Shown here: one piece after another, positions 2,894-35,233 of the stretch
Position numbering within the stretch: position 1 is the stretch's first letter
Layout of the letters: each line of letters begins with the position of its first letter
Assembly: GCA_013368315.1 (NCBI GenBank)
Contig: JAACJM010000067.1
Span: 310,001 to 374,000 of the forward strand
Source: Tetrapyrgos nigripes
Taxonomy: Eukaryota > Basidiomycota > Agaricomycetes > Agaricales > Campanellaceae
Reading direction: 5' to 3'
Length of the DNA stretch: 64,000 bases
Translations under genes and position numbers: made by a program
Notes under the pieces: generated by a model
Told to the model about the DNA's origin: nothing
Databases searched by the model: none
What the model saw: the letters and a program-made list of their open reading frames with translations, nothing else

Positions 2894-3250
2894 GGGGTTT
2901 GTTTTTGGTTCTCTTTCCTCGACGCCGCTTTACATTCTATTCTTCATGCCTTGTCATCATCATCATCATCATCATTCGTTAGACTTTTTCACCTTTTGTT
3001 CATCGCCGTTGTTCTGTTGCATTTGCATAAACGTTTGCTTGCTGCTCTTTTGTCCCTTTGTTGGATTCTAATTGTTTCGCTGGTCGGTCAGTGGTCAGTG
3101 GTTAGTTGGGACTGGACTGGATTAAGTTGGTATATAGATAAATGGTAATACTCACCAACATCGTCGACGTCGTCGTTTTTGCTTGTTTTTGTATCATAAT
3201 CACAGTTCATACATAGCATACCTTAAGTTTATATCATAACCTAGCGACGT
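2894..3250 (+). other. 3' flank of HMG-CoA reductase with (TCA)n run
   Basis: Probable 3' UTR and terminator region of the reductase gene. It holds a short TCA trinucleotide run at 2954-2976 and T-rich sequence. No coding potential was seen. Confidence 0.5.
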
Positions 3251-4225
3251 AGTGTACGCGCTTTCTTTTCTCTTGTATTTATTAACTACAATTACAGTTA
3301 CTTGCATGAATTGATCATGGTCATGTTTGAAAAAGTTGTGTGTGTGTTTGTAGTATTGCGCTGTACTGAAGTTTGGTGGGGAAATCTAGCTAATCGCCTT
3401 GCAGCCTCGTTCAAGTGAATTTCTCATCAGGAATGAATAGGTATCACCTGGATATATTGAGTGATGATGACTCGCTAAGCGCATACAGGACATGTAACTA
3501 GAGGGGGCAATGCAAAATAATAAGTAACTGATCAGTGTGTTGGAAAAATCGTGTTTACTTTGCATGGAATTGCAAGGTATGACAATGTCCTTAATCCCGC
3601 GCAAGGTAGCCCTAGCCTTACAATGTTCAGTATTTCTGGTTAAGATATCTTAAGGTCTTGATGTCCTTGTAGTGTATCACAAGGTATTGTAAGGATGGAG
3701 GGATTTTGAGCTGAAAAACTAGAAATAGTGCAGTAGGATTCTTCACTTACTGTATATACTACTCTAGCACCTTACATCACAAAAAAGGCAAAGATCTTCT
3801 GAATGAAGACAAGCAGCGTAACCCATTGTAGATAATGAAATCATATTTGAAAGAAGAATGCATACATTGTTGCCTTAAGTTGGAATAACCAGTACTCACA
3901 GAAGAAAATAAGTTGAAGATAGGAGATATCACATCTGAGAATCATAATTCTAATTGGTCTTAAACTGACACCCCAAATCATGTAAGTGAGGAGAACCTTC
4001 AGATAGAAGTTGAAATTTAGGATGATATTTGACCCTAGAAGTCATACTTTTCTGGTGTCTCCTATCTACCTGTTTGCTATTGCATGAAAGAAGATCATTT
4101 CCAGAAGTATGAGAAAGACATGATACTTACCTAGTAAATGATGCTGCATGAAGAATAAGTGCAGAGCTGCCAGTCAAACTATTAAAGAATTCTTGTTTCA
4201 ATATCATCCACTGGTATAAAAGAAT
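3251..4225. other. AT-rich intergenic DNA, no gene seen
   Basis: Stop-rich, AT-rich sequence between the reductase gene and the first retrotransposon remnant. No conserved protein motif was recognised in six frames. It is probably decayed transposon DNA. Confidence 0.4.
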
Positions 4226-9546: not shown

Positions 9547-11141
9547 TGCCAAAAAAATTGTCCACATGTTTGGCACTTTTGGAAAGATTGCTGATTTAAG
9601 AGCTATTGAGCAGAAATCTCAAAACATGGCTGGTGGTAGCAATAAAGCCTTTGATTAGAGCTACAATGATCTGTCTGTTTTGTCTTATTTGGCCAAATAT
9701 CTGTGGAGTTATGATTGATTTAAAACTGTATGTCATTTGGACAATTTTTTGAGTTGCCACTTCAAAATCATTATTGCAATAACCTGATGTGTTATACATG
9801 ATGTCATGGGTGGAGCTGTACAGTAATGTAATGTATACACTACAATGATGTCATAGCTGCCAGCTGGAGCATACATAGCAACATACAGATACTCTACAGC
9901 CTCTATGAAAATCATGGGGTCCCTCATATCAGCCCAGAAAGACAATCTCTACTCTCTCCTCTTAACTGCCTCTCCATCTGCAAAAATTGCAGCTCAGACT
10001 GGAGTATGGAAGCCAAGAGTTGCTTTTGTGGCTTAAAAGACAAATACAGACAATGAGAACAATACAGCAGGGTGTCCTAGGAGGCTCTACTACTTGCGAA
10101 GAGGTTAGATTAGAAAAAAATCCATTCTGGTAAAGCCAGATTGCTACACAAGTGGCCTGAAACATCAAGGCTCTTCTTGGAAAACCTGTCCCAACCTATA
10201 ACAGCCAAAACATTCCTGAAAACGTCTTGTGGCAATCTCCAAAACACAGAACAAGTGCAAACTTACAGTGACTTGCAGCAAGGCTCACTTGAAGTTTGCA
10301 CAGATGTAAAAAGACCAGGCTGTAGAAGGCTAGAAGTGGGTTATTTTCTCAGATAAGACCAAAACCAATTATTTTGAGGCAAATATGCCCCAGCATGTGT
10401 GAGAAAAGAGAGATAAATTCATGGTACAGCAAGATGTGACAGAAATGATGACATTTGAGAGAGAAAATGACATAATGAGGTAGGGTATGGGGCAACAGTA
10501 AGCAGTAGAAATGGTCCAGATGAAGGTGAAGATAGATTGCAAACACTATATGACCATCTTAAGTAACAAAATCCTGGAAAGCATTAATAATATGGGAGTT
10601 GATCCAGAGGTATTAACTTTCTAAAGTGCTATATCCAATGGTTTCCTTTATCAGAACATGTCTCTCTACCTATAAAAGCAACACTCTGCTTTCATACTTC
10701 AGTCTGAGCTGAAATTTTGATAGAGGGAGGGGCAGTTTGGAGGAGAAAGTAGAGATTGTCTTTCTCGGCTGATATGAGGGACCCCATGATCTTCATAGAA
10801 GCTGCAGAGCATCTGTATGTTGCTATGTATGCTCCAGCTGGCAGCTATGACATCACATTACTGTACAGCTCCACCCATGACATCATGTATAACACATCAG
10901 GTTATTGCAATAATGATTTTGAAGTGGCAACTCAAAAAATTGTCCAAATGACATACAATTTTAAATCAATCATAACTCCACAGATATGTGGCCAAATAAG
11001 ACAAAAAAGAAAGATTATTGTAGCTCTAATCAAAGGCTTTCTTGCTACCACCAGCCATGTTTTGAGATTTCTGCTCAATAGCTCTTAAATCAGCAATCTT
11101 TCCAAAAGTGCCAAACATGTGGACAATTTTTTTGGCCACTG
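9547..11141. mobile_element. Tc1-like fold-back element with about 480-bp inverted arms
   Basis: The left arm (about 9548-10035) and right arm (about 10665-11141) are long inverted repeats around about 630 bp of unique DNA with no transposase. The right end reads, inward, CAGTGGCCAAAAAAATTGTCC preceded by TA (11142-11143), which resembles Tc1-type termini (CAGTG..GGCCAAAAA). The left end has lost its first bases and about 30 bp of host integrase sequence. It is inserted in the family A integrase just before the GHPG motif. Confidence 0.65.
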
Positions 11142-11143
11142 TA

Positions 11144-13330
11144 TCTCCTTGTAGTTGTTGGTCATAAGGAACATAGATCTTTCCTTGAAAGAGAATGATC
11201 TCATTCTTGTAATTCCATTCCTGTAGATTTTTGACTAACAAGCATGGACTGTTGTTCAAGATGACTTTGACGGCACTCACTACCTCGGTGTCTTTCTGTG
11301 GACATTCTTGGATCTGTCTATTGCAGCCACTGCTCCTGGAAGAACTTGGGATCCAGTAATATTCTGTCTTTGTTGTCTTCCTTGACCCCCTCTTTATGAT
11401 CTGGTCTTCAAGAAAGAGGATCACTTCAGTTAAGATTTCCAGGTTTGTGAATAACAGTGAAGTTGAATCTGGTAGGAAACAAAGCCATCTTGCTTGTTGT
11501 TGGCTAAGTTTCTGTGAGGTGGTGAAATATTCCAGGTTTTTATGATCTGTGAGGATTTCAATAGTGTGTGGTGCACCTTCAAGGTAGTGTCACCATGCTT
11601 CTAATGCATGTATAATCACCAAAAATTCCTTATCATGAACACCATAATTTTGTTCAGTTTTGGATAAGGATTTTGACAGGTACTCATGGTCACGGAAAGT
11701 GACAGTCCCGTGATCCAAACATATATAAAAAGTTCGAGTCCATCTTGCACACGCAATGTCTGCTTTGCCCCGATTTTTTGCCACAGATGGGTATTAAACA
11801 TCCCAAAGATCAATGGACTGAAACTTGGGCTTAATTTGGGTATTGTCTAGCTCAAGGTGAAGGAAGCATGGGAGACCATTACTTTCCGTGACCATGAGTA
11901 TGCAACTGGATGCTATTTGTCATCAGAGCCTTTTTGTGATAGAATTCCTCCTGTAGCATAGTTCGAAGCATCAAAGAACAGGCAACAAAGTAAACACATC
12001 TTTAAGTGTCTGAAAGGCTTCTTCTGTATTGACAGACCATTTTCAAGGTTCATCCTTTTTTGTTAGATTGAAAAGTGGTCAAGCAACCCTAGAAAAGTCC
12101 TGTATGAACTGACAAGGAATGATTAAATATCCTTGACTGATTGTGGGGTTGGCCATTCAGTGACACCTTTAACTTTAACTGGATCCATTGCCAACATGTT
12201 ATGAGAGACAATCAGGCCTAGGAATTCTACCAAATCAACTTTGAAGATACATTTCTCTGGTTTCACATAAAGGTTGTTGTTTTGAAATTGTGCCAGCACT
12301 TGTTTGACCATTTGTTGATGTTCTTCCAAGGTCTCTGTAAAGATCAAAATGTCATCCATATAGATTACCACTTTTCCAGAATCAATGAGGTCCTTGAAAA
12401 GAGTATTTATCATCGCTTGGAATGTGGCAGGAGAATTCATAAGACCAAAGAACATCACCATTGGTTCAAAAAGTCCTCTGTTGGTTTTAAATGCCACTTT
12501 CTATTCATCCCCTTTTTTAATTCATATGTTGTTATATCTCCATTGAAGATCAATTTTGGAAAAGACTTGTGCTTCTTTGAGTTTGTCTACCAACTCAGAT
12601 ATGGGTGGTAAAGGATACTCATTTTTCACAGTTCCACAATTCAGTGCTCAGTAATCCTGTACAAGATGTAGCTTTCTGTCTTTCTTTTTAACAAAGAAGA
12701 AAGGACTTGCCGTAGGGGATTTTGAAGGTCTTATATATCCTTTGTTCAGGTTTTCATCAATAAAGCTGTCAAGCTCCTTTTGTTCGACAGGCAATAAGGG
12801 GGTTTGAAGTCTGTTTTCAATTCAATAGCATGGTCCCATTCACCATGTTCTGGTAATTGTAATTGTTCTGAAGTTTGCTTGTCAAAAACCTGTAGAAACT
12901 GATGATATTGAGGCAGAATCTTATCTGTAAGAGGTATATCTCTTTTGATTTCTTGAGCTGCTTCTGCAACTTCCTGAGCCTTGGTAAATCCAGCCTGGAT
13001 ATTGATATCTGGCATTTCAGGTGATTCCAAGTCTGGTTTCAGGTAGTCTCCTTTTCTTCTCAACAGATTTTCCATAACCTCTTGTTCCCACTGGTTCAGA
13101 ATATCTTTCTGATCATCATTTTCCTTGGTAAATATTGTTGTAAATCCCCAAATAGGAATACAGCGACATTGACCTGCAATCTTTGGCTGTGCAATTGGTT
13201 TGAATTGTCCAATTGGTTCTGACCATTTGACCTGGTAATCCTTGTGATGAGTTTGTGGGTCAGCAACAGTTGGTTTGGGAGGTTTGGGTTTCATGCATAG
13301 GTTAAGGATAGGGAGACTTTCCAGAGTACA
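11144..13330 (-). pseudogene. Family A gag-pol remnant: protease linker, RT, RNase H
   Basis: Minus-strand pol of family A. The 5' part (13390-12746) encodes a linker ending QVFDKQTSEQLQLPEHG, typical of the region before RT. RT follows with [11 protein letters not shown] (about 12690), KIDLQWRYN (about 12540), MVMFFGLMNSPATFQ, YMDDILIFTETLEEH (about 12370-12325) and FLGLIVS. The RNase H/connection domain has SKTEQNYGVHDKEFL (about 11665-11620), a [11 protein letters not shown] motif (about 11550) and the pre-integrase segment [14 protein letters not shown] (about 11190-11150). Several stops and a MITE at 11683 break it. The 5' end runs into family C RNase H at about 13300-13330, a recombinant or deletion junction. 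Confidence 0.8.
11683..11898. mobile_element. TA-target MITE, copy 1 (216 bp)
   Basis: Inverted termini CTCATGGTCACGGAAAGT with the target duplication TA (11681-11682, 11899-11900). Removing it joins HPVA to YLSKSLSKTEQNY in the host RNase H frame exactly. The same element occurs at 25687-25921, where about 20 bp present near one end are missing here. TA duplication suggests a Tc1/mariner-driven MITE. Confidence 0.85.
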
Positions 13331-15043
13331 TGTTTCAGGACATAATCGGAAGTGTTGGTTTTGACGATGATCGTTTGGTTCGGAACCCAATGACCAAGGA
13401 TCGGAGCGGAAGTAAAAGCATGCTTAAGGTAATTGAAAGATTCCTGGCACTGGATAGCTTTTCCAGTGAGATGGATTAGGGGTATGACGATATCCAAATA
13501 ATTGAAGATGAAGCGTCTGTAAAAGTTACAGAAGCCTAGGAAGGATTGTATATCCCAGACCTTCCGAGGAACGGGCCATTCCAGGATAGTTCAGATTTTA
13601 GAAGGATCCATTGTCAACCCTTCAGGGGAGAGAATGTAGCCTAGATACTCCATGGTATCAACGGAAAAGAAGCATTTTTCAGGATTGACGAAGAGTCTGT
13701 GCTCTCAGAGCCAACAGAATACTTCGCGAACATGTTTCTGATGATCCTCCTCATTGTCGGAATAGATCAGGATGTCGTCAAGATAGACGATGACAGTAAC
13801 ATCGAGGAGATCCTTGAGGATGTCGTTGATAAATCGCTGAAAAGCGGCGGGAGCATTACTGAGACCAAAAGGCATCACTTTCCATTCGAAGGATCCGTAG
13901 TGGGTCTGGAAAGCAGTTTTCCATTCATCCCCTTTGGTGATGTGGACCAAGTGATAAGTGTGACGGAGATCCAACTTGGTATAGATTTTCGCATGCTGGG
14001 GGGTGTCTAAAAGCTCGGAAATAAGTGGAAGCAGATACCTATCCTTCTTCGTGATGGCATTGAGGCCACGGAAGTCAACGCAAAGCCGAAGCTCTCTGCT
14101 TTTCTTCTTCACAAAGAGGACCAGAGCCGCGAAGGGCGAGGATGAAGGTTTGATAAAACCTACAGTCAGATGTTTGTCGATAAATTTCCATAATTCTCCT
14201 AATTCCCTGTCGGATACTGGATAAATCTGGGCAATTGGCAGAGCCGCACCCTTGACAAGATCAATCTTGAGGTCATAGGGACAATGCGGAGCCAGTTTAT
14301 CTGAGAGTCCTTTGTCAGCTAAGTATTTGGGAGCCTTTGGAGAAGGTGGGGTTTCCAAATTTGAGCATCTGGGGTTAACCAGAGCACCATTGGTTCGAGC
14401 TGATCCTGTTTGCTTCTCCGATGATGCTAATGCAGGTGTCGTCAACGGAAGACGCCATTTGCGAGATGGAAGGATAGGAATAGATGGGTTCGTACAGCCA
14501 TGATGATTTAGAACGAATGGGTGGCGTTGCAGCTGGAAGTGGTGTAGAAACCGGAGAACCCGGGTCAGCCTCAGAGGGCGACACACAGGGTTCAGAGCTC
14601 GGGGTGACAGCAACTGGTTCAGGGTCACGGAATTCGATGTTTCCTTTTATCCAGTCAACCGATGGGTTGTAGCGGAAAAGAAACTATATCCAAGGACTCC
14701 CTTACAAGTTGAGTCGAGATTAGTGACATAAAAGTCAAGAGGAATTCGTTCCCCCTTCGGAAAGTAAACGGAAAAACGGCATACTTTATTCAGGGTGCAG
14801 GGTATGGAACCATCAAGTAAGTGTAAACGAACAGGAGGAATGAAGAAGGTAGGTAGGGAATGTTCGGAAACGTATGTAGAGTTGATAAAACAATCTGAAG
14901 AACCAGAATCCAAAAGTGACGGAAAAGAAGTGGAAAGTTCGGGTTTAGTATATGGGACTAAGGATTTAATGGAAAGAGCAGCAGCGTTGAACGATCCCGG
15001 TCAACACAACTCCAACCTCGTGCCGAGGCATCAGAGTCACTGA
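13300..15043 (-). pseudogene. Family C pol remnant (PR-RT-start of RNase H)
   Basis: Minus-strand pol of the C copy of the C/E family. The retropepsin motif LDSGSSDCF is at about 14915, RT runs 14628-13705 with VKKKSRELRLCVDFRGLN, MPFGLSNAPAAFQ and YLDDILIYSDNEEDH (about 13790-13745). RNase H begins with TSAPILGHWVPNQ (about 13420) and is cut at about 13320. A deletion and stop lie between the gag end and the protease (about 15000), a frameshift lies at about 14650, and a stop lies after FCWL at 13705. Identity with copy E is high; many differences are CG to TG or CA. Confidence 0.85.
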
Positions 15044-16546
15044 CTATTTTGGGGACTGTGTGGAAGCAGTACCAGTTATGGAAGTACTACCAGAAGAGGT
15101 GTTTTCCGTGTTCGCAGCTTGGCTGCAAGCCTCGTTCGCTGCCTTCCACTTGTTACAGTCATCCGTTGAATGCTTCCCACCACAGAACATACAGAGATTG
15201 TTCTTCTTGCAACAGTCCCTTTCATCCTGGGATAGATTTCCGTCCTTCCCGAGCTTGTTGGCCCAGGGTTTCTCCTGGCCAGAAGGGAACGAAGATGACG
15301 AGGATGAGTTAGAGTTGGGATTATAGTTGGAATTGGAGGAATTGGAGGAGTTTCCAGATTTCCCACCTTTACCAGAGTTTGAGGACTTTCCAGAGCCAGA
15401 ACCAGAACTATTACCTCCTGAGCCTTTCCCTCTGGAATTCCCTTTTCCTCCGCTCGCTTCTTCCTGTTTCTTCTCAGTTTGCCAACGCCAGTAACGGGAA
15501 TCGATTTGGAGAACCTGGGATTTGAGACGGGGAAGGTTCTGTTCCTCGTAGACTAGGGCAAGAGTGTCCTTGATTCGTGGAGCCAAACCCTTTCGGAAAA
15601 AGTGTCACAGGGAATTCTCATCCCAAGCGGCCTGCAAAGCAAGTTGTTGGAACTTGACACAGTATTTCGTGGCCCAATCAGAATCCTTCATGAATAGAGC
15701 CTCCAATTGGTCCTCAGCATCCCTGACCCCGTCGAAAACCCTGAAGTTGTCCTTCAGCTCCTTGATGAAAATACCAAAGTCAAGGGTCCATGGAGCAGGT
15801 TCCTTGGGATCCAGGTTGAGGATTTCCGGCTCAAAGAATTCGAGTGCGGTGCCGGAAAGATAGGAAAGAGTGAAACTGATTTTTGCGGCATCAGTTGCAT
15901 ATGCTTTGGGACAGTTCTGGAGATTGATCTGGATCTGGATCAGAAACGGATGGAGCTTCTTCAGATCTGACCCATCAAAGACATCGGGTTTCTTCACTTC
16001 CGTCTTTTCACTGTGACCAGGTGTAAACTTTCCGATGACCTCGTTGAAACTTTGGAGGGCGGTAATGAACTGCCTTCTTTCGTCGTTGGAATTGTCAGAA
16101 CTATCTTCTCCTCCCAGAGGCCCACCATCTGGTGGTCCTCCGCCACCGTCATCAGATCTGCCTCCACCACCCTGGTGTTGTTCATTGTTGTCCCTGTCAT
16201 TTCCCTGACCATAATGCTGGCCTGGTGGAGGACCACAGCTGTCATTGGGATTGGCAGGTGTACATGAGGGTCCTGCTTGAGAGGATCCTTGAGTTTTGCT
16301 GTTGGTTTGTGTAAGGGTTGCGGAGTCTCCTGGCTCTGGGCCGTCCCAGCTATCGAGGAATTCCTTGAACGAACTCGTGTGGGGTTTGGTTGGGCTCGGA
16401 TGTGTGAAAATGCTGCCGGAGCATCTGTGTTGGCGAATTTGAACATTATGGAAGAGGTTGGAATAATAAGCGTTTTTGAATGGAGTTACTGGAACCGTAA
16501 GGTTCGGTGTCAGGAAAGGAGTTCGTGGTTGAGAACGTTGGGACAT
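15044..16546 (-). pseudogene. Family C gag, one nonsense mutation
   Basis: Gag protein starting with MSQRSQPRTP, with an acidic Gly/Asp-rich linker, a capsid-like central domain (KKLHPFLIQIQINLQ, FTLSYLSGTALEFFEPE) and a C-terminal CCHC zinc knuckle CMFCGGKHSTDDC (about 15200-15150). A TGA replaces the CGA seen in copy E at 15605 (DENSL*HFFRKG), a CpG-type transition. Gag ends SPK-stop, with the slippery heptamer CCCAAAA directly before TAG (plus coordinates 15047-15053), as in copy E. Confidence 0.85.
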
Positions 16547-16562
16547 TGTAGACAACAAGAGT

Positions 16563-16573: not shown

Positions 16574-17470
16574 TACTGTTAAGTCCAGGCGGATCCTAGT
16601 GTTAGGAAACACGTTGGATCTGAGCGGAAGTGTCAAGTCCATGCAGATACCCAATGCTAGGAAACATCAAGGACCCGGATAGAAGTCTTGAGTGGATTGG
16701 ATGGAGATTCTGAGTGGATCCAGATAGGAAAGAGCTTATAAAGATAAATAGGGATTTCAGTCGGAAAGACTGGGAAGCTCTAGGGAACCATCAAGGAAGG
16801 ATAGGAGACCAGCCTTGTTGATTTTGCACTTAAGCTATCTACTACAAACTTGCTAGCTTAAGTACTACTTTGGAAAATATCGGAATGAAGAGGAGTAAGA
16901 TAGGGATGGTTCGGAAATGAAGGAAAAGCACATGGTGCTACTGCAGAACAAAGTGGAATGATGTGGAAACAAAGTGGAGTAGGTTTGGAGATTAGATACG
17001 AGTTGTCCAGTAGTTATCCGAAATGAATCACAGGTTCCTGGATGGGATCCGTTGTGGAGATTAATAGTGGAGCTCGGATATGAAATCGGAAATGGCGGAA
17101 ATGAAGGAAAAGCACATGGTGCTACTGCAGAACAAAGTGGAATGATGTGGAAACAAAGTGGAGTAGGTTTGGAGATTAGATACGAGTTGTCCAGTAGTTA
17201 TCCGAAATGAATCACGGGTTCCTGGATGGGATCCGTTGTGGAGATTAATAGTGGAGCTCGGATATGAAATCGGAAATGAATGTGTGAATAAGGAAAAGGG
17301 AAAAGATTGGAAAGCGATAGGAAAGTAATGGAAACTAAGACTGTACTGGAAAGTCATAGGAAAGTACTGGAAAGTAAGACTGTACTGGAAAGTCATAGGA
17401 AAGTACAGGAAAGTAAAAGGGTACTGGAAAGCCATAGGAAAGTACAGGAAAGTGCATAGATCCTACAGGA
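16574..17470 (-). mobile_element. Family C 5' LTR with internal expansions
   Basis: LTR in minus orientation, starting ACTGTTAAGTCC at its inner end. It is longer than the about 625-bp LTR of copy E because it holds a 184-bp tandem duplication (16915-17098 and 17099-17282) and a 39-bp minisatellite of about 3.5 units with the core TACTGGAAAGTCATAGGAAA (about 17310-17457). Confidence 0.7.
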
Positions 17471-21525: not shown

Positions 21526-22533
21526 CTAGTCCTCAACAGTAGCCTTGGATTTCGGCTTTCGACTCTTCGATCCAGCCGATCCCTTAGCCTTTCCCTTTCC
21601 CTTTTCCCTTCCTGATGGATCCCCAATAGACATCAGCCTCTCCTCATTGGCACTCCACACATTCACCACCACTTCCTCGACATCAATCTTAAAGTGCTTC
21701 ATGATTGCGTCCATGGTGTCTCCGATCCTGATGAGACGATTCAGTTGAGCCAGCTGGAGGTGTCAGGAAATAGCTCGGCCTGACCAGTGAAGCTGCACCC
21801 ACTCTTAGCGTCGGTACAACCCTTGCAAGCTGTCTTCCCGTGCCCATTGGAAATGCATGGAATTCCATCCCTTCTGCACCAACCACAAGGATCTTCAAAC
21901 ATGTCCCCTTCGTCGACATCGTTCTCTGACTTGTTCCCACTATCCTCATCAACTCTTCTTCTCTGAGATGCACACAGGCTTGCTGGCTCCAGTCCTGCTG
22001 GCCGTTTTCCTCTCCCCTTTTCCGATGGCCCTACCACGTTTCCCTCTTCTTCCCCACCAGACCTTTGCCTCTCTGCATTCCTGTTCACAACTGCAATTGA
22101 CTTCTCCTTTTCCTCTGTTCATTTCCAAAGCACTCTGGCCTCTTCCTCTTCCAACTTCACCTTCTCTCCAGCTTCCGCTGTCTTCCAGTCATCCTCCCAA
22201 TCCTCCATCACCATGTTCACCTTCACAAATGCCTTGTGTAACATGATATATTCATCTATGGCTAGACAAGAACTTTCTGTTAAAACCTGGAAGATTCCAC
22301 TCCTCTCAGAACTACTTACCAGCTTCATTTTCCTTGTCAATTGCGACCTTTTCCACTTGGCTACCAACATGCAGTTTATTGACAGGAATGACAGGCTCCA
22401 GAGGAACTTTGGGTCTCAGGTCGTCATTCTTCTACTCTTGCAGGAATTTGTGAAGGCAGGTGGAAACATTGATAGGAACATGAGGAGCAGGGCTGGTGGT
22501 AGTGGGACTGGTAGAAGAAGACTGTCCAGGCAT
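21526..22533 (-). pseudogene. Antisense Zn2Cys6-type gene of element F, decayed
   Basis: Lies antisense between the end of pol and the 3' LTR of F, the same place as the gene at 33294-34323 in E. Exon 1 starts at ATG 22533, 20-25 bp from a TATAAATA box (about 22550), and aligns with E exon 1 but has one in-frame stop (HKFLQE*KND). A 58-nt GTAAGT...TCTAG intron (about 22263-22320) falls at the same phase-1 position as in E. Then comes an acidic/Glu-rich segment and CGWCRRDGIPC...CKGCTDAKSGC, spaced CX2CX6CX9CX2CX6C exactly as in E. A frameshift at about 21765 precedes LNRLIRIGDTMDAI and a Lys/Gly-rich basic tail. E's second intron is not present here. Function unknown; DNA binding is inferred from the cysteine pattern. 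Confidence 0.75.
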
Positions 22534-26577: not shown

Positions 26578-27202
26578 ACTGTAATATCTATGCTTCCATA
26601 CATCTTTCCGATCGCATCCGATGCTATTCCGAACTTCTTTTCCTTTTATTTCGAACTTCGTTCCCTTTCATTCCGAACACTTTCCGATCATTCATTTCCG
26701 ATTTCATATCCGAGCTCCACTATTAATCTCCACACACGGATCCCATCCGGGAACTCGTGATTCATTTTGGATAACTACCGGATAGCTCGTATCTAATCTC
26801 CAAAGCTATTCCACTTCATCTCCAATCCGTTCCACTTTGTTTCCACTTCGTTCCGTAGTACTCCATCCATCTCCAAGAACACCATGTGCTTTTCCTTCAT
26901 TTCCGAACCTTTCCTATCTTACTCCTACTCATTCTGATAGTTTCCAAAGTAGTACTTAAGCTAGCAACTTTGTAGTAGATAGCTTAAGTCTAAAATCGAA
27001 TTAGCTGGTCTCATAACTTCATCTGACTTCAGACAACAAAGTACCATCTTAACGGATTCCATTCCGTGTCTTCCCTATACTTCATTTCCATAAGACTACC
27101 GGTTCCGCCCGGTTCTGTCTTCATCCTTTCTTAAACTCCAACAAGACTTCCGCTCGGGTCCGACGTGTTTCCTAACGCTAGGATCCGCCCGGACTTAACA
27201 GT
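26578..27202 (+). repeat. Element E 5' LTR
   Basis: 625 bp, ends ACTGT...ACAGT. The segment AAGTCTAAAAT at 26986-26996 is complementary to the PBS and is therefore the predicted first 11 nt of the transcript (start of R) if the element self-primes. Confidence 0.85.
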
Positions 27203-27213: not shown

Positions 27214-27231
27214 CCTCTCTTGTTGTCTACA

Positions 27232-28760
27232 ATGTCCCAACGTTCTCAACCACGAACTCCTTCCCCGACACCGAACCTTACAGTTCTGGTGACTCCATTT
27301 AAAAACGCTTATTATTCCAACCTCTTCCGTAACGTTCAAATTCGCCAACACAGACGTTCCGGCAGCATTTTCGCGCACCCGAGCCCAACCAAACCCCGCA
27401 TGAGTCCGTTTAAGGAATTCCTCGATAGCTGGGACGGCCCGGAGCCAGGAGACTCCGGAACCCTTACACAAACCCAAAGTTGTTCATATGTCCAACAGCA
27501 AACTCAAGGATCCTCTCGAGCAGGACCCTCTCGTACAACCGCCAATCCCGATGACGGCCGTGGTCCCCCAGCGGGCCAGCGTTATGGTCAGGGAGAAGAA
27601 CATCAGGGTGGTGGAGGAGGCGGATCTGACGACGGTGGCGGAGGACCACCGGATGATGGACCGCCAGGAGATGGTGGTTCCGACAGTTCCGATAGCAACA
27701 GCGATGATGACGAAGAAAGGAGGCAGTTCATTACCGCTCTCCAGAATTTCAACGAGATCATCGGAAAAGTTACACCTGGTCATAGTGAAAAGACGGAAGT
27801 GAAGAAACCCGACATTTTCGATGGGTCGGATCCGAAGAAGCTCCGTCCGTTCCTGATCCAGATCCAGATCAATCTCCAGAACCGTCCAAAGGCATACGCG
27901 ACAGATGCCACAAAAATCAGTTTCACTCTTTCCTATCTCTCCGGCACTGCACTCGAATTCTTTGAACTGGAAATCCTCAACCCGGATCCCGAGGAACCCG
28001 CTCTGTGGACCCTTGATTTTGGAATTTTTGTCAAGGAGCTGAAGGATAACTTCGGGGTTTTCGATGAAGTCGGAGATGCTGAGGACCGATTGGAGGCCCT
28101 ATTCATGAAGGATTCCAATCGGGCCGCGAAATACTGCGTCAAGTTTCAACAACTTGCTTCACAGGTCGCTTGGGATGAGAATTCTTTGCGACACTTTTTC
28201 CGAAAGGGTTTGGCTCCGCGAATCAAGGATGCCCTTGCCCTAGTCTATGAGGAAACGAACCTTCCCCGTCTCAAATCCCAGGTTCTCCGAATCGATTCCT
28301 GTTACTGGTGTCGCCAAGCTGAAAAGAAACGGGAAGAAGGAAGCAGAGGAAAAGGGAATTCCGGGGGGAAAGGCTCGGGAGGTAACAGTTCTGGATCCGG
28401 CTCCGGAAAGTCCTCAAACTCTGGTAAAGGTGGAAAATCCGGAAATTCCTCCAATTCCTCCAATCCTCCAATTCCAATTATAATTCCAACTCCAATTCAT
28501 CCTCGTCGTCTTCGTTCCCTTCCGGTCAGAAAAAACCCTGGGCTAACAAACTCGGAAAGGACAGAAAACTATCCCAGGACGAAAGGGAGCGCCGCAAGAA
28601 GAACAATCTTTGTATGTTCTGTGGCGGGAAGCATGCGACGGATGACTGTAATAAGCGGAAGGCGGCGAATGAAGCTCGCGGCTGAGCCGCAAACACGGAA
28701 AACACCTCGTCCGGTAGTACTTCCGTGACTGGCACTGCTTCCATGCAGTCCCCAAAATAG
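27232..28760 (+). pseudogene. Element E gag, frameshifted near the zinc knuckle
   Basis: Gag starts MSQRSQPRTPSPTP just 19 bp after the PBS. It has an acidic, Gly-rich linker (about 27600-27720), a capsid-like domain (KKLRPFLIQIQINLQ, SYLSGTALEFFE, 27830-28200) and a Ser/Gly/Asn-rich tail. A frameshift in the Ser/Asn repeat at about 28465 moves the CCHC knuckle CMFCGGKHATDDC (about 28612-28650) to another frame, and a TGA follows at about 28684. Copy C shows the intact frame through this region. Gag ends SPK-TAG at 28758-28760. Confidence 0.85.
28751..28757 (+). promoter_or_regulatory. -1 ribosomal slippery heptamer CCCAAAA
   Basis: Gag reads TCC CCA AAA TAG. The seven bases C CCA AAA fit the X XXY YYZ rule for -1 slippage, and the -1 frame from here is open without a stop through protease to the end of RNase H (31174). 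The heptamer and stop are conserved in copy C. Confidence 0.65.
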
Positions 28761-31700
28761 TCAGCGACTCTGATGCCTCGGCACGAGGTCGGAGTTGCGT
28801 TGACCGGGATCATGCCAATCAGGAGGTTACTCTCAATGCCGCCGCTCTTTCCATTAAATCCCTAGTCATTCCACTTTCTATTCCCTCATATACTAAATCC
28901 GAACTTTCCATTTCGTTTCCATCGCTTTTGGATTCTGGTTCCTCAGATTGTTTTATCGACTTTACTTACGTTTCCGAACATTCCCTACCTACCCTTTCCA
29001 TTCCTCCCGTTCATCTATGCTTACTTGATGGTTCCGTACCTTGCACCCTGAATAAAGTATGCCGTCTTTCCGTTTACTTTCCGAAGGGGGAACGAATTCC
29101 TCTTGACTTCTACGTCACTAATCTCGACTCAACTTGTAAGGGAGTCCTCGGATATAGTTTCCTTTCCCGCTACAACCCGTCGGTTGACTGGGTAAAAGGA
29201 AACATCGATTTCCGTGACCCCAAACTGGTTGCTGTCACCCCAAGCTCTGAACCCTGTGTGTCGCCTTCTGAGGCTGACCCGGATTCCCCGGTTTCCACAC
29301 CGCTTCCGGCTGAAACGCCACCCATTCGTTCTAAAACATCATGGCCGTACGAACCCATCTATTCCTATCCTTCCATCTCACAAATGGCATCTTCCGTCGA
29401 CGACACCCGCATTAGCATCATCGGAGCAGCAGCTTTCCTGCGCTGTTGCAAACAGGATCAGCTTGAACCAATGGCGCTCCAGTTAACTTCGGATGCTGAG
29501 GTTCATGCGAAAGCCTCAAATTCGGAAACCCCATCTTCTCCAAAGGCTCCCGAATATTTAGCTGACTATTCCGATGTGTTTGATGAAAAGCTTTCGGATA
29601 AACTGGCTCCGCATTGCCCCTACGACCTCAAAATTGACCTTGTCAAAGGTGCGGCTCTGCCGATTGCCCGGATTTATCCTGTATCCGACAGGGAATTAGG
29701 AGAATTACGAAAATTTATCGATAAACATCTGACTATAGGTTTTATTAAACCTTCATCCTCGCCCTTCGCAGCTCCGGTCCTCTTTGTGAAGAAGAAAAAC
29801 GGAGAGCTTCGGCTTTGCGTTGACTTTCGTGGCCTCAATGCCATCACGAAGAAGGATAGGTATCCGCTTCCACTTATTTCTGAGCTTTTAGACACTCCCC
29901 GACGCGCGAAAATTTATACCAAGTTGGATCTCCGTCATGCTTACCACTTGGTCCGCATCGCCGAGGGGGATGAATGGAAAACCGCTTTCCGGACCCGTTA
30001 CGGATCCTTCGAATGGAAAGTGATGCCTTTTGGTCTTAGCAATGCTCCCGCCGCCTTTCAACGATTTATCAACGACATCCTCAAGGATCTCCTCGACGTC
30101 ACCGTCATCGTTTATCTCGACGACATCCTGATCTATTCCGACAATGAGGAAGACCATCAGAAGCATGTTCGCGAAGTATTCCATCGGCTCCGAGAGCACG
30201 GACTCTTTGTCAATCCCGAAAAATGTTTCTTTTCCGTTGATACTGTGGAGTATCTAGGTTACATTCTCTCCCCTGAAGGGTTAACGATGGATCCTTCCAA
30301 AATCCGAACTATCCTGGAATGGCCCGTTCCTCAGAAGGTCCGGGATATACAATCTTTCCTAGGCTTCTGTAATTTTTACAGACGCTTCATCTTCAATTAT
30401 TCGGATATCGTCGTACCCTTAACCCGTCTCACCCGAAAAGCTATCCAGTGGAAATGGACGCAGGCATGCCAGGAATCTTTCGATTACCTTAAGCACGCTT
30501 TTACTTCTGCTCCGATCCTTGGTCATTGGGTTCCAAACCAAAAGATCATCGTCGAAACCGACGCTTCCGACTACGCTATCGCCGCAATCCTCTCTCTCCA
30601 GTACGATTCCGGAGAGATTCATTCCATCGCATTCCATTCACGCACCTTACAATCCGCTGAACTCAATTACGATGTTCACGACAAGGAATTGCTTGCCATT
30701 TTTGAAGCTTTCCGAATCTGGCGACATTATTTGGAAGGTTCCGGATCCCCTATCGATGTCGTTACCGATCACAAGAATTTGGAATATTTTTCAACCACCA
30801 AAATTCTAACACGACGACAAGTCCGATGGTCCAAGTATCTTTCCGCCTTCAATCTCATTATTCAGTTCCGACCGGGTAAATTAGGTGCAAAACCCGACTC
30901 ACTCACTAGACGATGGGACATCTACCCAAAAGAGGGGGATAGCGACTACGCCAAGGTTAATCTGCAGAATTTCTGCCCAGTCTTCACCCAAGAACAACTT
31001 TCCGAATCGCTCCGAGCCTCTTTCCTCGAAGGACCCGCACTCCGTGCATCCATTATCATGGATATCAAGAAACTCCATTCCACAATCCGAGAATCCTACA
31101 CTTCTGATCCGGAATCACAAGCCGGTCTCAAATTAGCTAAGGATTCCTCATCATCCCGATGGAAAGCTCGATGAATCCGGGTTATTACGCTTGGACGATA
31201 GGATATTCGTTCCTGGTGCTTCCGACCTTAGACTTCAAGTTTTGCGACAACACCACGACCATTCCCTAGCAGGATACTTCGGACAAAACCGGACGCTTGA
31301 CCTTATCCGATGCCACTATACCTGGCCAAAGGTCCGAGAATTTGTTCGGGATTATGTCGCTTCCTGCACGGTTTGTGGTTGCAACAAGCCTCATCGACAT
31401 CGTCCTTATGGTCTCCTAAAACCACTTCCTGTGCCGGTCCGTCCATGGGACTCGATTTGCATGGATTTTATCGAACAACTACCGGATTCCAACGGATACA
31501 CAGCAATCCTGGTAATTGTGGACTGCGCATCCAAACAAGGAATCTTCATCCTGACTCACGATACCATTACATTGGAACAGCTCACGGAACTATTTGTTCT
31601 TCATGTTTTTTCTAAGCATGGTGTTCCTAACCATGTCACTTCCGACTGCGGTTCCGAATTCGTTTCCCATTTTTTCCGATCCTTAGGAAAAGCTTTGAAT

Positions 31701-32407
31701 ATGGAACTTCATTTCACTTCGGGTTATCACCTGGAAGCTGACGGACAAACCGAGCGCACGAATCAGACACTCAAGCAGTACATCCAGATCTATTGTTCTT
31801 ACCAACAGGATAATTGGTCTTCCCTACTTCCCATCGCTGAGTTCGCTTACAATAACGCTCCGAACGCTTCCACCGGAATCACACCCTTCTTTGCAAATAA
31901 AGGGTTTCACCCAAACTTAACGGTTCATCCTGACTACAATCTCGCTTCCGAACACGCCCGACATTTCGTTGTCAATCTCGAGGAACTTCATGGTTTCCTT
32001 CGGGACGAGATTCGAGAAGCTCAGAAACGTTACAAGGTACAGGCTGACAAACGCCGTCTGGATTTACCAGAAATCCCTATCGGTTCTGAGGTTTTTGTGT
32101 CTGCCAAACACATAAAAACTACAAGACCCACTCCGAAGTTCTCCGAGAAATTCCTTGGTCCATTCAAAGTTATCTCTCGTCCGAGCTCTCTTTCTTATGC
32201 CATAAAGCTCCCTGACTATCTCTGTGGGATCCACCCTGTTTTCCATGTGTCCCAACTAGAACCCGCTGTCCCAAACACAATTCCGAATCGTATCCCAGAT
32301 CCGCCCGCTCCGGTCGAAATTGAAGGTGAACTTGAATATGAAATCACCAAAATATTAGACTCGAAAATCAATCGGCGCCATCGGAAATGTCCTCTACTAT
32401 TTTTTGG

Positions 32408-32918
32408 TGTCAAGGTTGTCGATACACTCAATAACCACCCAAGTCACACAATACGAGAAAACTGGTTTTACAAGAGAAATAGATGGGTTAAGAGAGAAAG
32501 AGAGATAGAGAGAAAGTGAGCTGACTAGGCTCTACACTGCGTAGTAAGAGTACGGAGCGGAGACGAAGTGAACGAACTGAGGAATAGGTTACAAAGATCA
32601 CAGGTATATAAGTAAAATATGAACAGATGGGAAAGAGTAAGTAATAATAGACAGTATCATGTGGAAATGTCAAGGGCGAGAGAGTAATGAGCTAAATATG
32701 GATAGATGAAGGTACTGGATCATGAAGAATGATTGACAGTGAGAATGTTCATGGAGATAGGGATCGGAGGAGATAAGAATGTGAGTCATAGATCTACGGA
32801 GATGGTAACTATAGACGATGATGAGAAATGGTTAGTATTTATGGGGTTAGAGTGGGAAATGGGTAGTAAAGGGAAAAGAATAGAAAGGAAATGAATAGGC
32901 AGGGGACGATTCATGACA
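32408..32918. mobile_element. Family A solo LTR, TSD TTTGG
   Basis: TGTCA...TGACA, 511 bp, flanked by TTTGG on both sides (32403-32407 and 32919-32923). It is inserted in the chromodomain of element E. It is most similar to the LTR at 25002-25451. The T-run at the left junction is one base longer than needed to restore the frame. Confidence 0.88.
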
Positions 32919-33293
32919 TTTGGTACAATGGTCTGGTTACGAAGGCACCGACGAAGAATTTTCCTGGCTTCCCGTGGATGAGCTGACAGCCGAAGAAGCT
33001 ATAGACGAGTATCATCAGAAAAATCTGAACAAACCCAGTCCTCTTCCAATTTCATCTTAATCCTTATCGTTCTGACGTTTTCCGTCCCTTCCAGCGCTCT
33101 TCACTAATTTCAATTTATTCTAATTTTTCTCATTTTTTCCTTTTACTCCGATCGCATCTTAACTTCACTCAAAATTTGTTCCAAGAAAATTTTTTTTGCC
33201 CATCCGGGCCCAGTCAAGTATCCATTACCATTACAAAAAATCTATATACAAAAGTTCATGTCCATCGCGTCCGGCGCGCAACTGTCCCTTTCC

Positions 33294-34323
33294 TCAATCT
33301 TCCTCTACCACTGCCTTTGACCTCGGTTTCTTCCCCTTTCCTTTCTTCTTCGGCTTCCCGAGCGAATCCGGCATGTCCAGCAACCTTGCCTCCATTCCCG
33401 TCCACTCCTCATCCTCCATTTTGGGAAGTGGGATGTTCGACGATTCCGCCATCGCTTCTAGAACATTCCCTATATGGATGATGCGACGGAGTTGAGCCAA
33501 CTGTATGGCACAAAGGGTCGAGACGTTGGGAAGGACGGCTTTCCGACCAGTGAAGCTACACCCCACGCGTGATGCTGCGCAGGACTCACAACCACGTTTC
33601 CCGTCGCCTTGGGACGTGCACTCCAAACCGAGTCGGGTACACCAGGAACACCGCTATACAATCAAGGTCAAAATCCGAAGGTAAAGAAAAAACAGAAAAA
33701 CAAACGTACCTCGGCATATGCCTCTCCCTTCTTCACCTCAACCTCTTCCTCACTCTCCGAATCCTCATCCCCAGATCCCTCGTCCCTATGTTGCCTCCGA
33801 GCCGCACGAGGACTACTCAGTCTGGGATTCGCTTTTCTTTTTCCTCTCGCCTTCTCCGACAGGCCTGCATCGGAATGCTCCATCTCCACCTCTGGACCCC
33901 GTTCCATCCGTTCTGTCCTTTCCTTCTTCTTCCTTGCCCATTCCTCCAGCCGTTTCCCCTCCTCAGCCTCCAATTCCTCTTTCTTCGCCTTTTCCGCGTC
34001 TTTCCGCTGCTCCAACCACAACTCCATCAACTCCTCTGCAGCCTCATATTCCTCCATCAGAGCTTCATATGCTTGTCGAGCTAAAGTTGATTCCGTTAGC
34101 ATCTGTGGAAAACCCAATTCAAAACCGGTCACGTACCATTCTTGTTTTCCTGACGGACCCGATGCTTTTCCGTCACCCTCATACTATCATCGATCACTTT
34201 TTCCACCAAAGGTTCGGGATGCACAGGAGCCGGGGGTTTTGCGTTGGACGTTGTCCATTTGGTCATATACTCCGTCAGGAGCTTGGAAACATCAAGGGGA
34301 ACGTAGGAGGTGGTAGAAGACAT
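33294..34323 (-). CDS. Antisense Zn2Cys6-type accessory protein of element E
   Basis: Three exons on the strand opposite to gag-pol: 34323-34137, 34080-33710 and 33653-33294 give 305 residues without a lesion. Intron 1 (34081-34136, 56 nt, GTACGT, branch CTAAC, TTTAG) is phase 1; intron 2 (33654-33709, 56 nt, GTACGT...TATAG) is phase 0. Exon 1 begins MSSTTSYVPLDVSKLLTEYM. Exon 2 is Glu/Lys/Ala-rich and probably coiled coil, with the basic stretch KARGKRKANPR. Exon 3 opens with RCSWCTRLGLEC...CESCAASRVGC, spaced CX2CX6CX9CX2CX6C, and ends in a Lys/Gly-rich basic segment. The cysteine spacing is that of fungal Zn(II)2Cys6 DNA-binding domains. A nuclear, DNA-binding role is inference; no function is known to me. 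A homologous decayed gene sits at the same place in element F. Confidence 0.8.
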
Positions 34324-34368
34324 TGATAACGGTGAAGTTGGTTTTGCTATGCTTCCGAGGACCTCTCC

Positions 34369-34376
34369 CTTTTATA
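34369..34376 (-). promoter_or_regulatory. TATA box of the antisense gene
   Basis: On the minus strand TATAAAAG lies about 46 bp upstream of the ATG at 34323, outside the 3' LTR (which starts at 34610). It suggests that the antisense gene has its own promoter in the internal region. Confidence 0.55.
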
Positions 34377-34609
34377 CGTTTTCGAATACGTGCACGGACC
34401 ATCCTTATTGTTTCCTGTTCATTTTGTTACCAATTACTTAATTTAGAAACCATTCACAATCCCGATCGTTTCCATTTGTTTCCGATTCCATTGTTCATTT
34501 TCCGGGGTCCACCCCTTTTCTATTTTTTTCTATTGTCCTTTCAACTTCATTCCGACGGATTACTATTCGTTTCCATGCCTCTCGAGGGCTCGAGGCCTAA
34601 GAGGGGGAT

Positions 34610-35233
34610 ACTGTAATATCTATGCTTCTGTATATCTTTCCGATCGTATCCGATTCTTTTCCGAACTTCTTTTCCTTTTATTTCGAACTTCATTCCCTTC
34701 CATCCCAAATACTTTCCGATCATTCATTCCCGATTTCATATCCGAGCCCCACTATTAATCTCCACACACGGATCCCATCCGGGAACTCGTGATTCATTTC
34801 GGATAACTACCGGATAGCTCGTATCTAATCTCCAAAGCTACTCCACTTCATCTCCAATCCGTTCCACTTTGTTTCCACTTTGTTCTGCAGCACTCCATCC
34901 ATCTCCAATAGCACCATGTGCTTTTCCTTCATTTCTGAACCATTCCTATCTTACTCCTATTCATTCCGATAGTTTCCGAAGTAGTACTTAAGCTAGCAAC
35001 TTTGTAGTAGATAGCTTAAGTCTAAAATCGAATTAGCTGGTCTCTTAACTTCATCCGACTTCAGACAACAAAGTACTATCCTAACGGATTCCATTCTGTG
35101 TCTTCCCTATACTTCATTCTCAGAGACTACCGGTTCCGCCCGGTTCTGTCTTCATCCTTTCCTAAACTCCAATAAGACTTCCGCTCGGGTCCGACATGTT
35201 TCCTAACGCTAGGATCCGCCCGGACTTAACAGT
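34610..35233 (+). repeat. Element E 3' LTR with polypurine tract
   Basis: 624 bp, ACTGTAATATC...CTTAACAGT, preceded by the purine tract AAGAGGGGGAT (34599-34609). It carries the same CTTAAGTCTAAAATCG block as the 5' LTR. Confidence 0.85.

What the first reader, a model, noticed from the sequence alone, without database searches (positions are those of the whole stretch)
33294..34323. Antisense Zn2Cys6-type gene carried by a Ty3/Gypsy chromovirus
Between pol and the 3' LTR of element E, the opposite strand encodes an intact three-exon 305-residue protein with CX2CX6CX9CX2CX6C, a charged probable coiled coil and basic tails. The diverged element F carries its homologue at 21526-22533 in the same place and orientation, with identical cysteine spacing and the same phase-1 intron. 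Shared position plus protein-level similarity between two diverged families implies selection on an accessory function, perhaps binding the element's own LTR to regulate it, or steering chromatin. Spliced introns in antisense also prove that it cannot be read from the genomic RNA. Function is inference.
Basis: partly seen in the sequence, partly recalled or inferred. Interest (0 to 1): 0.88.

Follow-up and report, generated by a model that had tools for sequence, protein, structure and literature searches.

The report
Swappable antisense gene of fungal retrotransposon
A family of jumping genes in this (probably fungal) genome carries, on the opposite strand, an extra spliced gene for a cysteine-rich, probably nuclear protein that natural selection has kept working and that has been exchanged as a block between otherwise near-identical elements.

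Summary
Confirmed and extended. The minus strand at 33294-34323 reads as a three-exon, 305-residue gene with the stated cysteine spacing. In the host genome it belongs to one Ty3/Gypsy lineage: 66 of 70 integrase loci at least 60% identical to E's carry a homologue antisense downstream; 0 of 55 more distant integrase loci do. The protein was under purifying selection: variants shared by three or more copies give omega 0.46 (E type) and 0.45 (F type), singletons 0.8-1.3; integrase of the E copies gives 0.48. Type representatives are only 29-43% identical. F-type genes lack intron 2 and T3-type genes intron 1, exactly, which suggests reverse transcription of spliced antisense mRNA. New: F- and T5-type elements are 87-91% identical in integrase and 80-89% in LTR, but 47-52% in the antisense coding block between, so the gene moved as a cassette. 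Most likely role: nuclear regulator of the element's own LTR; LTRs of three types are rich in CGG, but binding and its sign are inferred. Zn2Cys6 membership is not established (below Pfam's cut-off). Antisense ORFs at this position are known in plants and Botrytis: new variant of a known kind.

The parts
34137..34323 (-). antisense gene, exon 1 (62 codons plus one base)
   Evidence: ATG kept in 25 of 26 E-type copies
34081..34136 (-). intron 1, phase 1; absent in T3-type genes
33710..34080 (-). antisense gene, exon 2: charged probable coiled coil, GKRKA-like basic stretch, acidic stretch
33654..33709 (-). intron 2, phase 0; absent in F-type genes
33294..33653 (-). antisense gene, exon 3: six-cysteine cluster, helix, basic tail, stop
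34321..34400 (-). promoter-like block: ATGGTCCGTGCAC, TATAAAA, AACTTC before the ATG
   Evidence: TATA kept in 26 of 26 E-type copies; block aligned over seven loci of four types
33160..33293 (-). 3' flank with a block conserved in E, F and three T5 loci
   Evidence: not found in the two T3 loci tried
34594..34611 (+). polypurine tract
34612..35231 (+). 3' LTR of element E; 28 CCG/CGG against 13.4 expected
26580..27200 (+). 5' LTR of element E
27220..28728 (+). gag ORF
   Evidence: Ty3_capsid 27.6 bits, cut-off 29.1; Retrotrans_gag at its cut-off
28928..31174 (+). reverse transcriptase and RNase H
31191..32405 (+). integrase, up to the inserted stretch
32917..33060 (+). chromodomain-like end of pol
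   Evidence: 19.1 bits, cut-off 25.1
21526..22533 (-). homologous antisense gene of element F (broken copy, one intron)

Best explanation
A spliced antisense accessory gene is a stable component of one Ty3/Gypsy lineage. Shown here from sequence: position, orientation, promoter-like and splice signals, purifying selection on the protein, several divergent alleles, exchange of the coding block between elements. Inferred: it is transcribed towards pol from its own TATA promoter just inside the 3' LTR, spliced and translated; the protein (basic stretch, coiled coil, six-cysteine cluster, basic tail) enters the nucleus, binds as an oligomer to CGG-containing repeats in the element's LTRs and changes their transcription or chromatin state, more likely as activator or anti-silencer than as repressor. 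Divergent alleles pass between elements by template switching or gene conversion in the conserved flanks. That it is a real, selected protein gene of the element I hold about 0.95 likely; the confidence below is for the LTR-acting activator or anti-silencer role.
For: Linkage 66 of 70 against 0 of 55. Selection in E and F, frame control. Conserved promoter-like block in four types and 3' block in three. Exact absence of intron 2 in F and of intron 1 in T3, both present in E and T5. Six cysteines invariant in five aligned rows. CCG/CGG excess in LTRs of E (28 vs 13.4, 0 of 500 shuffles), T5 L079 (15 vs 7.1, 0 of 500), T3 L041 (16 vs 9.8, 5 of 500); two other repeats of the window show none.
Against: No RNA, binding or localisation data. 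Zn2Cys6 match below cut-offs. F LTR L040 not significantly rich in CGG (7 vs 4.4, 69 of 500); gag and pol are somewhat rich too, and GGA is as enriched as CCG in E. E and T5 LTRs share 11 of 28 site positions, so the enrichments are partly inherited. F and T5 elements share LTRs but not the protein, so strict pairing of one protein with one LTR is not seen. T3 (four copies) shows no selection signal among shared sites, 17:7. A factor acting in trans helps dead copies too, which weakens selection for it.
Confidence: 0.42

Rival explanations
1. Self-limiting repressor: the protein represses LTRs of its own kind (copy-number control), as reported for HBZ and APH proteins of HTLVs. New alleles escape resident repressors, so rare alleles are favoured and the gene diversifies and is swapped.
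For: Divergent alleles on one backbone; antisense gene beside the 3' LTR with introns, as in HTLVs (PMC10186651, passages).
Against: F and T5 LTRs are 80-89% alike, so the target of an allele-specific repressor is not visible in the LTR; selection on an element to keep its own repressor is hard to explain unless it limits harm to the host.
Confidence: 0.2
2. Cofactor of the integration step: the protein helps nuclear entry or chromatin targeting of the pre-integration complex together with integrase and its chromodomain-like end.
For: Present where this integrase lineage is (66 of 70) and not seen with other lineages (0 of 55); basic stretches; selection as strong as on integrase.
Against: F and T5 integrases are alike while the protein differs, so there is no tight pairing with integrase; separate promoter and introns are not needed for a particle protein.
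Confidence: 0.2
3. The antisense RNA itself acts (double-stranded RNA, silencing or interference with sense RNA) and the protein is incidental.
For: The transcript would be complementary to the genomic RNA; such a role is discussed for plant elements (PMC7264820).
Against: Selection is on amino acids: omega 0.45-0.46 for shared variants, cysteines and splice sites kept while nucleotide identity between types falls to about 50%.
Confidence: 0.08
4. A captured host gene carried along without function.
For: Introns look host-like. Three of the 78 places that I read (L072, L077, L078) show no integrase in the 4.0-4.4 kb fetched.
Against: Selection; 66 of 78 homologues beside integrase. A search with the L077 piece finds only itself and six T5-type copies.
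Confidence: 0.03

Closest known systems
Antisense ORFs between pol and 3' LTR of plant Gypsy elements (Grande gene23, RIRE2, Retand TRP28)
   Same: Place, orientation, presence in most copies, nuclear or DNA-binding character, own promoter in Grande; function unknown (PMC7264820 parts 1 and 2 of 3; PMC11963269 passages)
   Different: Six-cysteine protein; no TRP28 match in Pfam; two spliceosomal introns with exact losses; coding block exchanged between near-identical elements. The word 'intron' does not occur in the Retand paper's main text
brtn of Boty elements in Botrytis cinerea
   Same: Antisense additional gene in a fungal Gypsy element (named in PMC7264820 and PMC8365987, passages)
HBZ and APH proteins of HTLVs
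   Same: Antisense, spliced, near the 3' LTR, nuclear, acts on the LTR (PMC10186651, passages)
   Different: No bZIP; promoter lies inside the element, not in the LTR; works-like comparison only
VANC anti-silencing proteins of Arabidopsis VANDAL transposons
   Same: Element-borne, related proteins with different targets, target motifs repeated in the element (PMC5735166, abstract and outline only)
   Different: DNA transposon; no sequence relation tested; works-like comparison only
ORF3 pool of bdelloid rotifer LTR elements
   Same: Accessory ORFs appear exchanged between retroelement types (PMC5408684, passages)
   Different: There different enzyme-like ORFs in different elements; here divergent homologous alleles replace one another at one locus
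Fungal Zn2Cys6 transcription factors
   Same: Six cysteines in CX2CX6CX9CX2CX6C; Leu3 among the weak PDB matches (E 0.46-0.71)
   Different: Below Pfam cut-off; in E, F and T3 the glycine loop comes first and the lysine or arginine loop second, the reverse of host factors

Membership tests
Antisense additional ORF between pol and 3' LTR (aORF-3R) | antisense, between pol and 3' LTR | tested here: met
Antisense additional ORF between pol and 3' LTR (aORF-3R) | present in most copies, conserved like other element proteins | tested here: met
   66 of 70 integrase loci; omega 0.45-0.46 against 0.48 and 0.66 for integrase
Retand TRP28 (PF04195) | Pfam match | tested here: not met
   not among Pfam matches up to E 1 for four type proteins
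brtn (Boty) | protein homology | not tested
   sequence not held
Zn2Cys6 (PF00172) | cysteine spacing CX2CX6CX5-12CX2CX6-8C (recalled) | tested here: inconclusive
   met in E, F and T3; T5 has 14 in the middle spacer
Zn2Cys6 (PF00172) | Pfam gathering score | tested here: not met
   13.2 bits against 21; 2 of 4 types match at E up to 1; hhalign against host factors probability 4%, E 0.0095. One type also matches LysM models (E 0.0013), taken as spurious
Zn2Cys6 (PF00172) | two-metal cluster fold | tested here: inconclusive
   exon 3 model pLDDT 61.8, pTM 0.29; no fold search made
Ty3/Gypsy element | gag, RT-RNaseH, integrase order between LTRs | tested here: met
Chromovirus | chromodomain at the end of pol | tested here: inconclusive
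   E: PF00385 19.1 bits, cut-off 25.1; F: no match up to E 1

The most novel reading that the evidence does not exclude
The antisense locus is a multi-allelic specificity module of the retrotransposon: related elements keep a common pol and LTR but carry mutually divergent alleles that are exchanged as a unit, as immunity regions are in phages (recalled) or anti-silencing specificities in VANDAL transposons; part of the exchange and of the intron loss ran through reverse-transcribed antisense mRNA.
Probability: 0.25. Interest if true: 0.88.

Novelty: new variant of a known kind. Interest (0 to 1): 0.7.

Why it matters
The function of antisense ORFs in LTR retrotransposons is unknown (PMC7264820). 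This genome offers natural replicates: divergent alleles on nearly the same element backbone, with evidence of protein-level selection and of past splicing, so that allele-specific action on LTRs can be tested directly. It would also show that an antisense gene of a retroelement can be copied through its own mRNA.

Tried and rejected
Homologues elsewhere: none at E<=0.001 in the large protein collection, none confirmed in viral contigs (34) or prokaryote genomes (35). These collections need not hold fungi, so nothing is claimed about other fungi; the genome has no relatives here. Literature: ten searches; in their listings I saw no paper on such a gene in a basidiomycete. PMC3248453, PMC2864245 and PMC3411680 were looked into by word search only. 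Structure: low-confidence model, so no fold search. Sense shadow frame rejected. Ordinary divergence as cause of the F/T5 difference rejected: integrase dS is 0.30 between F and T5, 0.33 within F, about 1.0 between E and F. A first acceptor for intron 1 gave a stop and was replaced by the later AG after CTAAC.

Weak points. The E copies are 25 of the best protein hits plus the window; the near-identical C310 copy and duplicate loci were dropped; choosing best hits favours conserved proteins. F used 15 loci (window's included), two of them (L060, L067) only 53-55% identical. Shared variants may include recurrent CpG changes, which raises omega. Singletons of E gave 84:25 (omega 1.24):34 (0.81), with another alignment. 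Variants seen in just two copies gave no signal in E (1.03) or F (0.88). AS dS within F exceeds 0.5 in 97 of 102 pairs while integrase dS within F is 0.33; I cannot explain the gap. The 4 of 70 near loci without the gene were not examined; of 12 of 78 gene places without listed integrase, pol was seen in L038 and L044, none in L072, L077, L078, and the rest were not examined; rows F_L046 and T3_L070 are not true LTR and distort tree and means. L073 has no integrase in its stretch, L043 integrase reads 68%, L045 (promoter, LTR) and L046 (LTR) do not align there. Precise intron loss is inferred by comparison, not observed.

Full report
Anatomy. Element E runs from a 5' LTR (26580-27200) through gag (27220-28728), RT-RNase H (28928-31174), integrase (from 31191) and a chromodomain-like end (32917-33060) to a 3' LTR (34612-35231). 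The LTRs are 93.9% identical over 627 aligned positions. Between pol and the polypurine tract (34594-34611) the minus strand holds a gene with exons 34323-34137, 34080-33710 and 33653-33294 coding 305 residues. E's own pol is no longer intact: RT and integrase lie in different frames, and about 510 bp (32406-32917) are present in E and in the near-identical C310 copy but in none of 25 other distinct loci compared.

Distribution. The protein finds 170 exon-level matches. With searches from other types they merge into 78 places. Ten of ten diverged loci fetched first (30-38% identical) have integrase next door on the opposite strand. Of 70 integrase loci at least 60% identical to E's, 66 have such a gene on the opposite strand within 4.5 kb downstream; of 55 less similar integrase loci, none. 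The latter are only the best scored of many. Of the 78 gene places 66 have a listed integrase; L072, L077 and L078 show none in the stretch read.

Types. E: two introns. F (L040, element F): intron 1 at the same place and phase, no intron 2, although the protein aligns through the site without a gap. T3 (L041, L069-L071): no intron 1, intron 2 present. T5 (L073-L076, L079): both introns in the loci read (spliced out in L074 exons 2-3 and L076), and a middle cysteine spacer of 14. L072 is a decayed further form that seems to have both. Identity between type representatives is 29-43%. Since E and T5 have both introns, F and T3 most simply lost one each. Loss exactly at the splice sites points to reverse transcription of a spliced antisense mRNA followed by recombination; this is inference.

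Selection. For sites with two bases among copies I compared amino-acid-changing with silent changes against the numbers expected if the same base changes (CpG context kept) fell at random in the gene. E: singletons 84:25 (expected 79.5:29.5), two copies 48:17 (omega 1.03), three or more 72:65 (expected 97.1:39.9; omega 0.46, P 4.7e-6). F: singletons 207:49, two copies 53:21 (0.88), three or more 57:59 (expected 79.0:37.0; 0.45, P 1.7e-5). T5: singletons 86:51 (0.71), two copies 56:53 (0.53, P 7e-4). T3: singletons 73:50 (0.72), two copies 17:7 (1.26). Integrase: E copies, three or more, 60:67 (0.48); F and T5 copies 94:69 (0.66). So single copies drift, while lineages that went on transposing kept the antisense protein about as strictly as integrase. 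Pairwise dN/dS by dS bin: E 0.29-0.54, F 0.29 in 97 of 102 pairs, T5 0.18-0.47, T3 0.37-0.71. Wrong frames give omega above 1.4 except the wobble-aligned sense frame, rejected by its stops and weaker similarity.

Cassette exchange. Median integrase dS is 0.95-1.2 between E, T3 and the others, but 0.30 between F and T5, as within F (0.33). On the integrase tree F and T5 elements form one clade (100/100) and are intermixed; holding T5 together is rejected at p-AU 0.019. Along L040 (F) against T5 loci L074, L076 and L079, identity is mostly 85-94% in integrase, 32-64% through the antisense coding region (2389-3457), 64-75% in the 200 bp upstream of its start and mostly 75-95% in the LTR; F against F and T5 against T5 stay mostly at 75-98%. 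By segment, F against T5: integrase 87-91% (four of five loci; L073 lacks it), coding block 47-52%, promoter stretch 67-77%, LTR 80-89%; F against F: coding block 81-92% in six of seven (L045 67%). Such a jump between alike flanks is not ordinary divergence; one side was replaced. Direction is open; the intermixing suggests more than one event.

Signals. In seven loci of four types an ATGGTCYRTGC-like block, a TATAAA box and AACTTC precede the start (L040 itself has TACAAA; other F copies TATAAA). After the stop a block TGCCCATCCGGG..GTATCCATTAC..ATCTATATACAA is conserved in E, F and three T5 loci; I did not find it in two T3 loci. So the transcription unit, not only the ORF, is kept.

Protein. 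A PLDVS-like N-terminal motif, charged probable coiled coil, basic stretch, acidic stretch, six cysteines, helix and basic tail. The cysteines are invariant in the five rows. Zn2Cys6 membership fails Pfam's cut-off and a profile comparison with host factors. In E, F and T3 the first half carries glycine and the second lysine or arginine at the fourth loop position, the reverse of the host's factors; a weak Leu3 alignment shows the same crossing. This is an observation, not a test.

Function. A nuclear regulator of the LTR is the most economical reading. LTRs of E, T3 (L041) and T5 (L079) hold more CCG/CGG than shuffled sequence; F (L040) does not significantly. In E the top five-letter words are ATCCG and TCCGA, 10 each against 1.6-1.9. 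F and two older T5 copies have fewer and more TTCCA/TTCTG, as CpG decay would give. Against: gag and pol are somewhat enriched, GGA is as enriched as CCG in E, and 11 of 28 E sites are shared in position with T5. The divergence recalls VANC (PMC5735166, abstract); the arrangement recalls HBZ (PMC10186651, passages).

Known background. [quoted passage not shown] function unknown (PMC7264820, parts 1 and 2 of 3; PMC11963269, passages; PMC8365987, passages). Hence a new variant of a known kind. In the listings of ten searches of the held library (named under Tried and rejected) I saw no spliced, six-cysteine, allele-swapping one; subscription papers are mostly missing there.

Noticed in passing
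window 32406-32917: About 510 bp inserted near the integrase end of element E, shared with a 99.8% identical copy on contig C310 and absent from 25 other E-type loci; E and C310 may be a duplication or two haplotypes.
   Followed up: partly
L077 (G000:C30:469300-473300), hit at 2403-2630: A homologue of the T5-type cysteine region with no integrase in the 4 kb read; possibly a host gene or an element remnant.
   Followed up: partly
window 13324-16558, minus strand: A third copy of the lineage with gag and RT (up to 88-89% identity to E) but no matching integrase or antisense gene; it seems truncated.
   Followed up: no
window 9548-9834 and 10850-11136: Inverted repeat of 287 nt, 98% complementary, about 1 kb apart.
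   Followed up: no
window 16912-17278: Tandem pair of 183-nt units, 99% alike, inside LTR-like sequence.
   Followed up: no
L041 (G000:C19:749300-754000): T3-type element whose integrase lies on a long branch (0.49) although part of its RT is 91% identical to E's; decayed or recombinant.
   Followed up: no
E-type, F-type and T3-type cysteine clusters: The two halves of the cluster look swapped in order relative to the host's Zn2Cys6 factors.
   Followed up: partly
F-type loci: Synonymous divergence in the antisense gene (dS over 0.5 in 97 of 102 pairs) exceeds that of the integrase of the same elements (median 0.33); unexplained.
   Followed up: no
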